Source: Sporosarcina sp. HYO08 (GTDB lineage Bacteria; Bacillota; Bacilli; Bacillales_A; Planococcaceae). From it: DNA of 64,000 nt. Each line of letters starts with the position of its first letter. Position 1 is the first letter of the stretch. This document shows, piece by piece, positions 2,541 through 64,000 of the stretch. Position numbers and translations under genes: made by a program. The notes beneath the pieces are model-generated. The model made no database searches and had not been told where the DNA came from. It saw only the letters and a program-made list of their open reading frames with translations. The stretch spans positions 248,001-312,000 of the forward strand of contig NZ_LPUT01000012.1 in NCBI RefSeq assembly GCF_001563475.1. Direction: 5' to 3'.

Positions 2541-3398
2541 ATGGCACTTGTTTCAATGAAAGAAATGATGATTAAAGGAAAAAAAGAAGGTTATGCAATC
2601 GGACAGTTTAATCTGAATAATCTTGAATATACGCAAGCTATTTTACAAGCTGCACAAGAAGAACAATCTCCAGTAATTTTAGGGGTATCAGAAGGTGCGG
2701 GCCGCTATATGGGTGGTTTTACAACAGTTGTAAACATGGTAAAAGGTTTAATGCACGATTATCAAATTACAGTTCCAGTTGCTATTCACCTTGATCATGG
2801 TTCAAGCTTTGAAAAATGTAAAGAGGCGATTGATGCTGGCTTCACCTCCGTTATGATTGATGCTTCGTCAAAACCGCTTGCCGAAAATATTGAGATAACG
2901 AAGAAAGTTGTCGACTATGCACATCAACACGGTGTGTCCGTAGAAGCTGAATTAGGTGTCGTTGGCGGACAAGAAGATGATGTGATCGCAGACGGTGTTA
3001 TTTATGCAGATCCGGCAGAGTGTAAGGAACTAGTTGAAAGAACAAATATTGATTGCTTAGCGCCAGCGCTCGGTTCGGTCCATGGCCCATATAAAGGTGA
3101 GCCGAACTTAGGATTTAAGGAAATGGAAGAGATTTCTAGCCAATCTGACTTACCTTTAGTACTTCATGGAGGTACAGGTATTCCGCTAAAAGATATTCAA
3201 CGTGCAATTTCTTTAGGGACAGCGAAAATTAACGTTAATACAGAAAACCAAATCGAAGGAACAAAGGCAGTTCGTGCAATACTAGCTGCGGACGAGAATG
3301 TATACGATCCGCGCAAATATTTAGCGCCAATGCGCGATGCGATTAAGCAAGCAGTTATTGGTAAAATGCGCGAATTTGGCAGTTCACAAAAAGCATAA
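2541..3398 (+). CDS. fbaA: class II fructose-bisphosphate aldolase
   Basis: 285-residue zinc-dependent aldolase that interconverts fructose 1,6-bisphosphate with dihydroxyacetone phosphate and glyceraldehyde 3-phosphate in glycolysis and gluconeogenesis. Visible signatures are [11 protein letters not shown] (catalytic Asp and zinc-ligand His), [12 protein letters not shown], the zinc/phosphate segment [16 protein letters not shown], and LHGGTGIP. Length fits the Bacillus FbaA subgroup. The start follows GGAGGAATAGCA. It is its own transcription unit, flanked by a palindromic repeat upstream and a terminator downstream, and neighbours the transaldolase and glpX, so three sugar-phosphate enzymes are clustered. 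Confidence 0.97.
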
Positions 3399-17877: not shown

Positions 17878-17989
17878 GAGTTTCCCTAAAAGTAGATCGG
17901 GTTTCCCGCACCGTACCCTGAGTTTCCCTGATTGCCCGTGGAGTTCCCCAGAAAGCCCACTGAGTTCCCTGAAACAACAATGATTCCCG
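17878..17989 (+). repeat. 21-bp periodic array 1 (about 6 degenerate units)
   Basis: GAGTTTCCC-like cores start at 17878, 17899 (GGGTTTCCC), 17920, 17941 and 17962, exactly 21 bp apart, with a decayed sixth unit at ~17983 (GATTCCC). The array starts 30 bp after the glyA terminator, with the repeat reading in the direction of glyA transcription. It is the shortest and most degenerate of four related arrays. It fills most of the glyA-upp gap. No RBS, coding potential or spacer-type variability is seen. Confidence 0.8.
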
Positions 17990-31919: not shown

Positions 31920-32382
31920 GAGTTTCCCGCAACTTGTGGCGAGTTTCCCTCAACATGTCGCGAGTTTCCCTCAACGTGTGGCGAGTTTCCCTCAACGTGC
32001 TCTGAGTTCCCCGCAACGTGTGGCGAGTTTCCCTCAACGTGTCATGAGTTCCCCTCAACGTGTGGCGAGTTTCCCCACAACGTGTGGCGAGTTCCCCACA
32101 ACGTGTGGCGAGTTCCCCGCAACGTGTCATGAGTTCCCCGCAACGTGTGGCGAGTTTCCCTCAACATGTCATGAGTTCCCCTCAACATGTCGCGAGTTCC
32201 CCGCAACTTGTGGCGAGTTTCCCTCAACATGTCATGAGTTCCCCTCAACGTGTGGCGAGTTTCCCTCAACGTGCTCTGAGTTCCCCGCAACGTGTGGCGA
32301 GTTTCCCTCAACATGTCATGAGTTCACCGCACCACCCCTTGAGTTTCCCACACCGGACTGCGAATTCTCTGCAATTCCTTCA
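31920..32382 (+). repeat. 21-bp periodic array 2 (about 22 units)
   Basis: Head-to-tail units of the form GAGTTYCCCKCAAC plus a variable 7-mer (GTGTGGC, ATGTCGC, GTGTCAT, GTGCTCT and others). Units start at 31920 and recur each 21 bp, except one 22-bp unit near 32066 that shifts the phase by one base. The last three units (from 32320) decay. It starts 15 bp after the spoIIQ terminator and fills the gap to the spoIIID promoter. Because 21 is seven codons, long frames stay open on both strands, but there is no RBS or start context. Confidence 0.9.
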
Positions 32383-53499: not shown

Positions 53500-53707
53500 G
53501 AGTTCCTCGCAACTGCGCTCGAGATTCCCGCGATGATGCGCGAGTTCCCCTCAACGAAGCGTGAGTTCCCCGATCCGCCGCGAGTTCCCCGCAACTGCGC
53601 CCGAGTTTCCCGCAAAGATGCGTGAGTTCCCCGCAACTGCGCCCGAGATTCCCGCAAAGATGCGCGAGTTCCCCGCAACTGCGCCCGAGTTCCCCTCAAC
53701 AGGCTAA
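53500..53707 (+). repeat. 21-bp periodic array 3 (10 units)
   Basis: Units start at 53500, 53521, 53542, 53563, 53582, 53603, 53624, 53645, 53666 and 53687: 21 bp each except one of 19. Alternating unit types (GAGTTCCCCGCAACTGCGCCC and GAGWTTCCCGCAAAGATGCG) give a 42-bp higher-order period in the second half. Starts 17 bp after the terminator. From 53708 to 53953 only AT-rich sequence with no gene. Confidence 0.9.
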
Positions 53708-60894: not shown

Positions 60895-61182
60895 GAATTG
60901 CCCTGAATCGCTCCCGAGTTCCCCTGAACGAGTGCTAAGTTACCCGCAATTCATGCTGAGTTACCCTAAACAGGCCTTGAGTTGTCCTCAACCGGCTCAG
61001 TTGCCCTGAATCGCTCCCGAGTTCCCCTGAACGAGTGCTAAGTTACCCGCAATTCATGCTGAGTTACCCTAAACAGGCCTTGAGTTGTCCTCAACCGGCT
61101 CAGTTGCCCTGAATCACTCCCGAGTTACCCTGAACAAGCGCTGAGTTACCCGCAATCTATGTTAAGTTGCCCTCAACCCGCC
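60895..61182 (+). repeat. 21-bp periodic array 4 (14 units, 103-bp higher-order repeat)
   Basis: Units start every 21 bp (one 19-bp unit per block) from 60895. Five units form a 103-bp block. Blocks 60895-60997 and 60998-61100 differ only in their first three bases, so they are a recent duplication; the third block (61101-61182) has diverged. Core is GAGTTnCCCTGAAC. Starts 10 bp after the terminator. Confidence 0.92.
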
Positions 61183-61227
61183 ATAAACCAACCACGACAA
61201 GAATTCATAAAATTCTACAAAAAGCAC

Positions 61228-61256
61228 TTGTTATCAAACGACATATTTGCTACTCT
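61228..61256 (+). promoter_or_regulatory. possible promoter of the NERD gene
   Basis: TTGTTA, 17 bases, TACTCT, 35 bases before the GTG. Confidence 0.5.
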
Positions 61257-61290
61257 GGAATTGATTACAGAAAATTAAAATTAAGGAGGA

Positions 61291-62124
61291 GTGACTCCAA
61301 TAAGTATTTATCGAAGAAAGCCTGAAATAATCAAGGCGTTGCATCGTCTACTGATTCGTCTTCATCCCGATAGCCCCCATTTCGAACGGATGAAAGACAT
61401 ACTCTATCAACAAGAAGCTGGTTACATAGGTGAAGTCAAAGTAGACAATATTCTACACTCCATCCATTTTCCTGAACCCGTAAAGATTTTGACCAATGTT
61501 GAACTTGCTATTTCCCCAGGCAACTTCATTCCAATTGACACTCTAATTGTTTCTTCCACATCCATTCTTATTCTTGAGATCAAGAATATTGCGGGTACAT
61601 TTACTTATATTCCAAATCCTCCACATTTTGTTCGAACCTATCAAGGTAAAGAATCCATTGTCATTGATTGTCCTTTCATGCAGCTCCGTAGGAATCAAAT
61701 CGGTTTAGATCAATGGCTAGCTAAAAACCGCTTGCCTATTAAATCTACAGGCATGATCGTCATGGCCAATCATAAAACATCTGTCCTGAACGCTCCGCCG
61801 GACATGCCGATTCACTATGCAAAACATTTATCGGTCCTATTAAGAGGCACAGAACCGAAAAAACAAATAATGACGCAGTCCCAAATAAACGAACTCGCTT
61901 ATAAACTGCAGCAAGATCTTCGTCCCTACAATCCATATCCAATCTGTGAAAAATACAATATCGATCCGCGACATCTTAAAAAAGGGTTCATTTGTTCAAA
62001 CTGCTCCACGAACTTAATCCGATATTCTGAACGAAAGTGGGAATGTCCAACTTGCGGAGAACTAACCGATCAATCCTATTTAGGAAATGGAGCGGGAATC
62101 CTCGGTATTTTAATGCCGAGATGA
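61291..62124 (+). pseudogene. NERD-domain protein, 5' fragment cut by an IS element
   Basis: Encodes a nuclease-related-domain protein: NERD core with GEVKVDNIL, PIDTLIV and ILEIKNIAG (the D and ExK of the nuclease fold), then a zinc ribbon CSNC...CPTC. Native coding ends at Leu264 (codon 62080-62082). The following 13 codons (GNGAGILGILMPR) come from the left end of the inserted IS. Resumed sequence is at 63863. Start is also odd: GTG 61291 touches AAGGAGGA, whereas ATA at 61300 sits at the ideal distance and the family usually starts there. Function unknown in general; DNA processing is suspected for the family. Confidence 0.85.
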
Positions 62125-62224
62125 AAGCGACCACCCGTAATGGTAAATGAAATAACTGACTATGTGTAGATGCTTTAAGATTGTGTATATTGAATTATAA
62201 ACGATATATAGATACACTATGTGT

Positions 62225-62656
62225 ATGGGGAAATTAACTCACGCACGAACGTGCGTCTACAACGTAAACTATCATATTGTTTGGTCGGTGAAATATAGAA
62301 GAAAGGTATTAAACTCAGTTATTGAAAGGCGTCTGAAAGAGATTGCTTTCGAGGTTGCGAAGGAGAAAGAGTTTGTTATTCACAAGTTGGAAGTCGGCGA
62401 AATGGATCACGTACACCTCTTCGTTTCAGCACATCCAAAGATCGCCCCTTCTTACATTGTGAAAATGATTAAGGGTATTACGGGCAGAAAATTATTCATC
62501 GAATTTCCCGAGATCAAAGAAAAACTATGGAATGGTACCTTGTGGAACCCAAGCTTCTATCTGGAAACGGTAGGTTCCGTTTCACAAGAGGCCATCCAAC
62601 AGTATATCGATAAACAAAAGAAAGGAGATGACTTGGTTGGCAATGATAACGTATAA
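62225..62656 (+). CDS. tnpA: IS200/IS605 family Y1 (HUH) transposase TnpA
   Basis: About 143 residues. HUH motif in MDHVHLFVSAHPK and catalytic Tyr in the C-terminal helix QQYIDKQKK. Single-strand peel-and-paste transposase acting on the end hairpins. ATG 62225 gives the usual start GKLTHARTCVYNVNYHIVWS; ATG 62219 is two codons earlier and neither has a clear RBS. Overlaps tnpB by 20 bases. Confidence 0.92.
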   Translation: MGKLTHARTCVYNVNYHIVWSVKYRRKVLNSVIERRLKEIAFEVAKEKEFVIHKLEVGEMDHVHLFVSAHPKIAPSYIVKMIKGITGRKLFIEFPEIKEKLWNGTLWNPSFYLETVGSVSQEAIQQYIDKQKKGDDLVGNDNV

Positions 62657-63737
62657 GTTCAAAATCTCCGCAAAACAAACACAGAAGGATAAGATCATCG
62701 AAACTATTTCTCTCTGCCGATGGCTGTATAACACGGCCCTTGAACAGCGGATTCTTTTGTATCGCGAAAAGAAACAATCACTTTCTTTTTATACGCAAAA
62801 GAAGGAGCTTCCGCTCCTAAAGAAAGAATTTCCGATCTTTAAAACTGTTCATTCTCAGGTCCTCCAGAATGTATTGGAGCGTTTGGATAAAGCGTATAAG
62901 GGGTTCTTTGGAAGAATCAGGAAAGAGCAGAAAGCGGGGTTTCCTCGCTTTAAAGGCACAAACCGTTTTCACTCATTCACATATCCGCAAAGTGGTTTTG
63001 AACTCAAAGGAAACGTTCTTAAGCTTTCCAAAATAGGGGATGTTCGGATTCGTCGTCACCGAAAAATCGCAGGTAAAATCAAAACGTGTACAATTATTCA
63101 TAAAAACGGAAACTTTTTTGTTTGTTTTGCTTGCGAAACGACAAAAGTAGCTGTGCCTGCCCTTCCGAAAAAATCGGTAGGTGTTGACCTCGGCGTTCAA
63201 CATTTGGCGATCACTTCGGATGGTGAAATCTTCGAGAACCCGAAACATTTACGTAAAAACGAACGAAAATTAAAGCGTCTGCAGCGTTCGGTTTCGAAGA
63301 AAAAGAAAGGTTCCAATCGACGAAAAAAAGCCGTAAGGCTTCTGGCGAAGCTTCACGAACATATCGCAAATAAAAGAAGGGATACCTCTCATAAAGTATC
63401 CCGTAAACTTGTAAATGAATATGACTTGATCGTTTTTGAAAACCTAAACGTTCAAGGGATGGTCAAAAACCATCATCTAGCAAAAAGCATTACGGATAGC
63501 GCGTGGAGGAATTTGATCGACCTAACTTTATACAAAGCTGAGAATGCTGGTAAAAGGGTAGTTCTTGTCAATCCTTACAACACATCGCAGATGTGTTCGG
63601 AGTGCGGCACGATCGTTAAAAAAACATTAAAAGAGCGTGTGCACAGTTGCTCGTGCGGTTATATCGAAGATCGTGATATAAACGCCGCAAAAAACATTTT
63701 ACAGCTCGGGCTATCCACCATAAAAACGGTAATCTAA
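62637..63737 (+). CDS. tnpB: RNA-guided endonuclease TnpB
   Basis: About 366 residues. N-terminal helix-turn-helix region, then RuvC with Asp in VGVDLGVQHLAI, Glu in YDLIVFENLNV and Asp in IEDRDINAAKNI, plus a zinc finger (CSECG, CSCG). All catalytic residues are present, so it looks active. TTG 62637 lies nine bases after AAAGGAG; ATG 62628 touches the RBS and ATG 62643 is alternative. Directs cleavage of empty target sites using the element's right-end RNA. Confidence 0.93.
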   Translation: MAMITYKFKISAKQTQKDKIIETISLCRWLYNTALEQRILLYREKKQSLSFYTQKKELPLLKKEFPIFKTVHSQVLQNVLERLDKAYKGFFGRIRKEQKAGFPRFKGTNRFHSFTYPQSGFELKGNVLKLSKIGDVRIRRHRKIAGKIKTCTIIHKNGNFFVCFACETTKVAVPALPKKSVGVDLGVQHLAITSDGEIFENPKHLRKNERKLKRLQRSVSKKKKGSNRRKKAVRLLAKLHEHIANKRRDTSHKVSRKLVNEYDLIVFENLNVQGMVKNHHLAKSITDSAWRNLIDLTLYKAENAGKRVVLVNPYNTSQMCSECGTIVKKTLKERVHSCSCGYIEDRDINAAKNILQLGLSTIKTVI

Positions 63738-63862
63738 GAAACATAAGGTGCGGAACGTGCCTTCGTGGAGAGAATGGGGTTGCCCATCTCAATGAAACGA
63801 GAAGCATCTTCGGATGCATCCGGAATTATCGGATGCTCGGGATTTTAATCCCGAGAGGTTCA
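63738..63862 (+). ncRNA. omega RNA (right-end guide RNA scaffold) of TnpB
   Basis: Downstream of tnpB, the right end shows ordered hairpins: GAGAATGGG/CCCATCTC (63769-63790), GCATC-TTC-GGATGC (63804-63817) and CTCGGG/CCCGAG (63836-63855). In this family the scaffold often begins inside the tnpB 3' end, so the true 5' end is probably earlier. The guide would be the flanking bases from 63863 (CAAGGTTTACAGGATTGG). Confidence 0.65.
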
Positions 63863-64000
63863 CAAGGTTTACAGGATTGGTTTATGTTAATAAAACCCAG
63901 AATCACAAATGAAGAATGCCGCCAATTTTTTAATTTGAAAAATAGGTATACGGCAAAATATATACTTAGTATGTCGCCATTAAAGAGGGAAGGGCAGTCA
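63863..64000 (+). pseudogene. NERD-domain protein, 3' fragment (continues past window)
   Basis: 46 codons open to the window end, without a start or RBS. Reads QGLQDWFMLIKPRITNEECR and onward through NRYTAKYILSM, the C-terminal region typical of NERD zinc-ribbon proteins. Joined to the 5' fragment it gives CPTCGELTDQSYL-QGLQDWF in a single frame. Confidence 0.85.

What the first reader, a model, noticed from the sequence alone, without database searches (positions are those of the whole stretch)
61291..64000. NERD gene precisely split by an IS200/IS605 element, frame restorable across 1,780 bp
The 5' fragment ends its family-like sequence at CPTCGELTDQSYL (62082). The continuation QGLQDWFMLIKPRITN appears right after the IS right end (63863). 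Removing 62083-63862 joins them in frame. Hairpins with the same ATTTTAAT loop mark both ends. It therefore documents both an inactivation event and the exact insertion site.
Basis: partly seen in the sequence, partly recalled or inferred. Interest (0 to 1): 0.8.

Follow-up and report, generated by a model that had tools for sequence, protein, structure and literature searches.

The report
Jumping gene splits a nuclease-like gene
A common kind of bacterial jumping DNA element has landed inside a nuclease-like gene and cut it cleanly in two near the edge of its last domain; the break can be mapped to the base, but it is an ordinary event.

Summary
Window 62083-63862 (1,780 bp) is an apparently intact IS200/IS605 element (Y1 transposase TnpA, RNA-guided nuclease TnpB) inside a NERD-domain gene. 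The two gene pieces, searched apart, both hit 29 of 29 homologue loci, adjoining each other without a residue lost or gained (264 + 71 codons against a 338-residue open frame in the nearest). A related species has that homologue intact at the same place, between an SLH-domain gene and murJ, without the element. Related elements support the ends: TTTA before the left end here and in 3 of 4 relatives, AGAGGTTCA at the right end here and in 4 of 4. One base of placement is ambiguous. In a model of the homologue the break falls three residues into the first helix of a C-terminal winged-helix-like domain; nuclease-like domain and zinc ribbon stay upstream. It is the only NERD gene found in the genome. 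By the known mechanism, TnpB with its 3' RNA would recognise the empty site. No empty allele of the same species was available; the intact syntenic copy is 57% identical. The biology is standard: a new member of a known family.

The parts
61291..62082 (+). 5' part of the NERD gene (264 codons): NERD domain and zinc ribbon; the open frame runs 13 codons into the element, stop ending at 62124
   Evidence: Pfam PF08378 E 8.9e-10; homologue matches; frame
62079..62082 (+). target tetranucleotide TTTA abutting the left end (presumed TAM)
   Evidence: sequence; left flanks of 3 of 4 related elements end in TTTA
62083..63862 (+). IS200/IS605-family element, one copy in the genome
62101..62120 (+). 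left-end hairpin (8 bp, TTTA loop)
   Evidence: fold; counterparts by eye in L034, L035, L039
62219..62656 (+). tnpA, Y1 transposase, 145 aa, open frame intact
   Evidence: PF01797 E 4.3e-39; NF033573; PDB 2xm3 E 1.6e-29
62628..63737 (+). tnpB, RNA-guided nuclease, 369 aa, open frame intact, overlaps tnpA
   Evidence: NF040570 323.8 bits over cut-off 100; PDB 8bf8 E 2.5e-60
63735..63862 (+). predicted omega/reRNA scaffold (start is approximate)
   Evidence: conserved sequence and consensus fold in 4 elements
63836..63855 (+). right-end hairpin (8 bp, TTTA loop)
63859..63862 (+). right-end tip TTCA
   Evidence: AGAGGTTCA here and in 4 of 4 related elements whose right end was located
63863..63878 (+). 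expected 16-nt guide of the reRNA, taken from the NERD gene
   Evidence: by analogy with ISDra2 (PMC8612924, passages); inferred
63863..64000 (+). 3' part of the NERD gene, winged-helix-like domain; continues to L002 4078 outside the window

Best explanation
A complete IS200/IS605 element inserted, in sense orientation, 3' of a TTTA in a NERD-domain gene of a bacterium of the genus that holds the Sporosarcina genomes (shown: anatomy, ends, gene continuity). TnpA cut and joined single strands at hairpin-marked ends without duplicating the target (inferred from the family and the end anatomy). The insertion separates the NERD nuclease-like domain and zinc ribbon from the C-terminal winged-helix-like domain, so a 277-aa truncated product is expected and the gene is probably inactive (inferred). 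TnpB with a reRNA that carries the first bases of the downstream gene part would cut empty copies of the site after TTTA and so keep the element in place; its own right end reads TTCA there and is expected to be spared (inferred).
For: Both pieces, searched apart, hit 29 of 29 homologue loci. In L005 and L007 the BLAST match of the N piece stops one residue before that of the C piece starts; the first C-piece residue in those matches is still element-coded and stands where Leu264 of the N piece belongs, so nothing is lost or gained. The G057 copy has the same length codon for codon across the site. G057 has SLH gene - intact NERD - murJ, the order found here. Related elements share the ends, including a 233-bp deletion derivative in G011 with both. 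Open tnpA and tnpB with strong family and PDB matches. Consensus scaffold fold in four elements. TTTA plus the 16-nt guide, at up to 3 mismatches, occurs in the own genome only at the element's own right junction, with one mismatch. Model of the intact G057 copy, mean pLDDT 88.8: helix-strand-helix-helix-strand-strand from residue 264; the break lies between 266 and 267.
Against: No same-species empty allele was seen; the intact syntenic copy is 57.2% identical over the N part and 54.3% over the C part. Loss of function is not shown, nor activity of TnpA, TnpB or the RNA. One related element, L038, reads TCTTA at its left flank; its tnpA is in two frames and its tnpB match distant. The left ends of L034, L035 and L038 were extrapolated 9, 9 and 13 bases beyond the alignments.
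Confidence: 0.95

Rival explanations
1. The truncated NERD protein is still made and works, or works differently, without its winged-helix-like domain; the insertion changes rather than kills the gene.
For: The NERD domain with the IDTL...EIK residues kept in homologues, and the zinc ribbon, lie entirely upstream of the break and are stop-free; the break lies near a domain edge in the model of the homologue.
Against: The C-terminal sequence is present in 29 of 29 homologue loci. The species has no other NERD gene found and several relatives lack the gene at this place, so there is no sign that a function is being kept here.
Confidence: 0.15
2. The gene was already decaying or dispensable when the element landed, and the insertion is neutral.
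For: In G016 the syntenic NERD copy is frameshifted, and 9 of 13 fetched stretches have both neighbours without NERD between them. By my arithmetic on the percentages the G000 branch is somewhat longer than those of G057 and G002 for both parts.
Against: No stop or frameshift in 264 + 71 codons, and identities to intact copies of 48-57% for both parts, against 54-66% among the intact copies. The G016 frameshift may be a draft error (230 contigs, 88% complete).
Confidence: 0.25
3. Two separate genes lie on either side of the element and never were one gene.
For: None found.
Against: Contiguous matches to single proteins and a gap-free junction.
Confidence: 0.01

Closest known systems
ISDra2 (IS200/IS605 family, Deinococcus radiodurans)
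   Same: Partially overlapping tnpA and tnpB, end palindromes, target motif required for TnpA and read by TnpB, reRNA from the 3' end (PMC8612924, passages). Best PDB matches are TnpB 8bf8 and transposase 2xm3; that both are the ISDra2 proteins is recalled.
   Different: Target motif TTGAT there, TTTA here; TnpB 408 aa there, 369 aa here.
IS608 (ISHp608, Helicobacter pylori)
   Same: Its transposase is among the PDB matches, 2a6m E 2.5e-23; target tetranucleotide and hairpin layout are recalled.
   Different: Target TTAC and right tip TCAA (recalled) against TTTA and TTCA here.
NERD-domain proteins (PF08378), e.g. the copies in G057, G002 and G054
   Same: NERD domain, four-cysteine zinc ribbon, C-terminal domain.
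   Different: Here the gene is split by the element. SmdA of Staphylococcus aureus (PMC9040797, passages) also has a NERD-like region but is a membrane protein of another layout.

Membership tests
IS200/IS605 insertion sequences | Y1 transposase | tested here: met
   PF01797, NF033573 over cut-off, PDB matches
IS200/IS605 insertion sequences | TnpB of the RNA-guided family (accessory, often present) | tested here: met
   NF040570 over its cut-off, 8bf8; the narrower NF038281 is below its cut-off (312.8 of 425 bits)
IS200/IS605 insertion sequences | Subterminal hairpins at both ends | tested here: met
IS200/IS605 insertion sequences | Insertion 3' of a fixed short motif | tested here: met
   TTTA here and in 3 of 4 relatives, TCTTA in L038
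IS200/IS605 insertion sequences | No target-site duplication | tested here: met
   equal length, codon for codon, against the empty syntenic copy of another species; no same-species allele
IS200/IS605 insertion sequences | Single-strand excision and insertion | not testable with these tools
   needs experiment
TnpB/omegaRNA nucleases | Structured 3' RNA reaching the right end | tested here: met
   consensus fold of four elements, pairs not counted formally; expression not shown
TnpB/omegaRNA nucleases | Guided DNA cleavage next to the target motif | not testable with these tools
   needs experiment
NERD proteins | PF08378 above gathering score | tested here: met
   39.5 bits over 22.1
NERD proteins | Nuclease fold or activity | tested here: inconclusive
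   Foldseek: 0 of 532 matches reach E 0.001; several of the best weaker ones are endonucleases such as Bax1, R2 and Can2; activity not testable

The most novel reading that the evidence does not exclude
The element has separated a nuclease-like module from its winged-helix-like module near the domain edge and left a stable short NERD protein with altered behaviour, while its reRNA, which now carries a conserved stretch of the NERD gene, keeps intact NERD alleles from returning by recombination: a TnpB that acts as a local gene drive against a host nuclease gene.
Probability: 0.06. Interest if true: 0.45.

Novelty: new member of a known kind. Interest (0 to 1): 0.17.

Why it matters
It gives a base-exact insertion with a syntenic intact comparison and a TTTA target, useful for annotation (two NERD fragments are one broken gene) and as a candidate TnpB with a TTTA motif. 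It does not change what is known of the family.

Tried and rejected
Same-species empty allele: 68 genus genomes searched with the DNA of the 5' part gave matches in 5 of 68, the window's own included, the other four at 65-70% identity. A genome-contig scan with the window protein found no relative (28 pattern hits, 0 confirmed). The scan with alignment A1, which does not hold the window protein, kept the best 80 of 157 relatives; besides the G057 record itself the best is 63% identical to G057, none is an allele.

Other known RNA in 61000-64000: Rfam at E up to 1 gave one hit, isrK, 20.3 bits of 50 needed, taken as chance.

More copies of the scaffold: 3 of 261 family genomes at up to 3 mismatches, own included; 0 viral contigs for an exact stretch. 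Defence-system reading of the NERD protein: PADLOC gave 3 weak hits, best E 0.004, PglW among them at 0.009. Known TTTA motif of a TnpB: 3 papers hold the words TnpB, TTTA and TAM; I saw passages of one of them (PMC12781874), where TTTA is a Cas12a PAM, and passages of another TnpB paper without TTTA (PMC10951260); this is no claim that none is in print. Of I saw listings and starts of abstracts; of two papers listed there, PMC8612924 and PMC9040797, I also saw passages. Branch lengths are too weak to date the insertion.

Names: G handles bear none. The 128995 record is labelled Arthrobacter, the other three Sporosarcina.

Full report
What is there. The window is part of contig C12 of a 3.05-Mb genome; the contig goes on, and L002 covers window 60001 to 10 kb beyond the window end. 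The frame at 61291-62124 is a NERD protein (PF08378, 39.5 bits, cut-off 22.1). Its last 13 residues are coded by the element. After the element 71 stop-free codons run from 63863 to L002 4075, with the stop at L002 4076-4078.

Is it one gene. I searched both pieces apart against the open frames of the fetched loci. They hit the same proteins: the C piece was found in 29 of 29 homologue loci. In L005 the N match ends at residue 288 and the C match begins at 289, in L007 at 276 and 277; the first residue of the C match is the last one coded by the element and takes the place of Leu264 of the N piece. An alignment of 18 of these 29 homologues, with the pieces added separately, shows them end to end. 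In DNA the G057 copy has the same number of codons across the site. These loci are the best 29 besides the own one from a search in which 60 of 101 genomes, own included, had a match to the N piece.

Same place, no element. A murJ match was found in 55 of 61 genus genomes; 18 are close copies (69% identity or more, own included). I fetched 13 of the 17 other close ones. In G057 the order is SLH gene, intact NERD, murJ; in G016 it is the same with a frameshifted NERD; in 9 (G009, G022, G051, G038, G040, G031, and with a wider gap of 2.1-3.1 kb G052, G020, G010) both neighbours are present without a NERD match at E 1e-6; in G058 the contig ends after murJ and in G008 the SLH gene was not found. 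So the NERD gene is optional at this place.

The element. TnpA and TnpB frames are open and match solved relatives. The element is single in the genome, with one other, different Y1 transposase elsewhere. A DNA search of 151 genomes found relatives in 8, own included. Left end: L039 aligns from base 1; L034 and L035, extrapolated by 9 bases, also have TTTA before the end; L038, extrapolated by 13 and with a broken tnpA and a distant tnpB match, reads TCTTA; L033's left end was not found. The tnpA of L035 is in two frames as well. Right end: AGAGGTTCA closes the window's element, L033, L034, L039 and, located by its motif, L035. L036 differs at the right; the ends of L037, L040 and L041 were not examined, and L042 is the L034 element again.

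The RNA. The 3' end holds a strongly kept stretch, identical over 27 bases in three species. Four elements give a consensus fold of -32.67 kcal/mol in which, by eye, several stems keep pairing while letters change; I did not count pairs with the tool. With four sequences this supports but does not prove the reRNA. In ISDra2 about 16 bases at the reRNA 3' end come from the DNA next to the element and guide cleavage beside the target motif (PMC8612924, passages). By analogy the guide here is 63863-63878, from the NERD gene, and its only near match behind a TTTA-like motif in the genome is the element's own junction, which reads TTCA.

What the break does. The model of the intact G057 copy (24 sequences, mean pLDDT 88.8) has helix 264-275, a strand, two helices and two strands at the C-terminus, a winged-helix-like order; the break corresponds to residues 266/267, three residues into the first of these helices. 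The winged-helix label is mine from the order of elements; Foldseek gave no PDB match at E 0.001 or better, and among the best weaker ones are endonucleases such as Bax1, R2 and Can2. Pfam has no model for the C piece. That this domain binds nucleic acid, and that its loss inactivates the protein, are inferences. The function of NERD in bacteria is little studied; the SmdA paper says so (PMC9040797, passages).

Verdict. It is an ordinary insertion by a member of a well-known family, in a gene that relatives often lack at this place.

Noticed in passing
window 31920-32311, 53542-53699, 60916-61155; L002 4179-4299 and 5919-6129: Intergenic-looking arrays of a roughly 21-bp unit with GAGTTNCCCNNAA: 32 exact matches in the window (2 more lone ones at 17878 and 17941 are among them), all on the + strand, against 0.12 expected; arrays also lie beyond the NERD gene and beyond murJ.
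   Followed up: partly
L039 1474-1706 (G011): A 233-bp derivative of the same element type with both ends and too short for either gene.
   Followed up: partly
L164 about 3188-3191 (G016): The syntenic NERD copy is frameshifted near a run of C; real or a draft error.
   Followed up: partly
L053: A record labelled Arthrobacter beigongshangensis falls in the same genus as the Sporosarcina genomes here; probably mislabelled.
   Followed up: no
L052 (G000:C8): A second Y1 transposase, not of this element.
   Followed up: no
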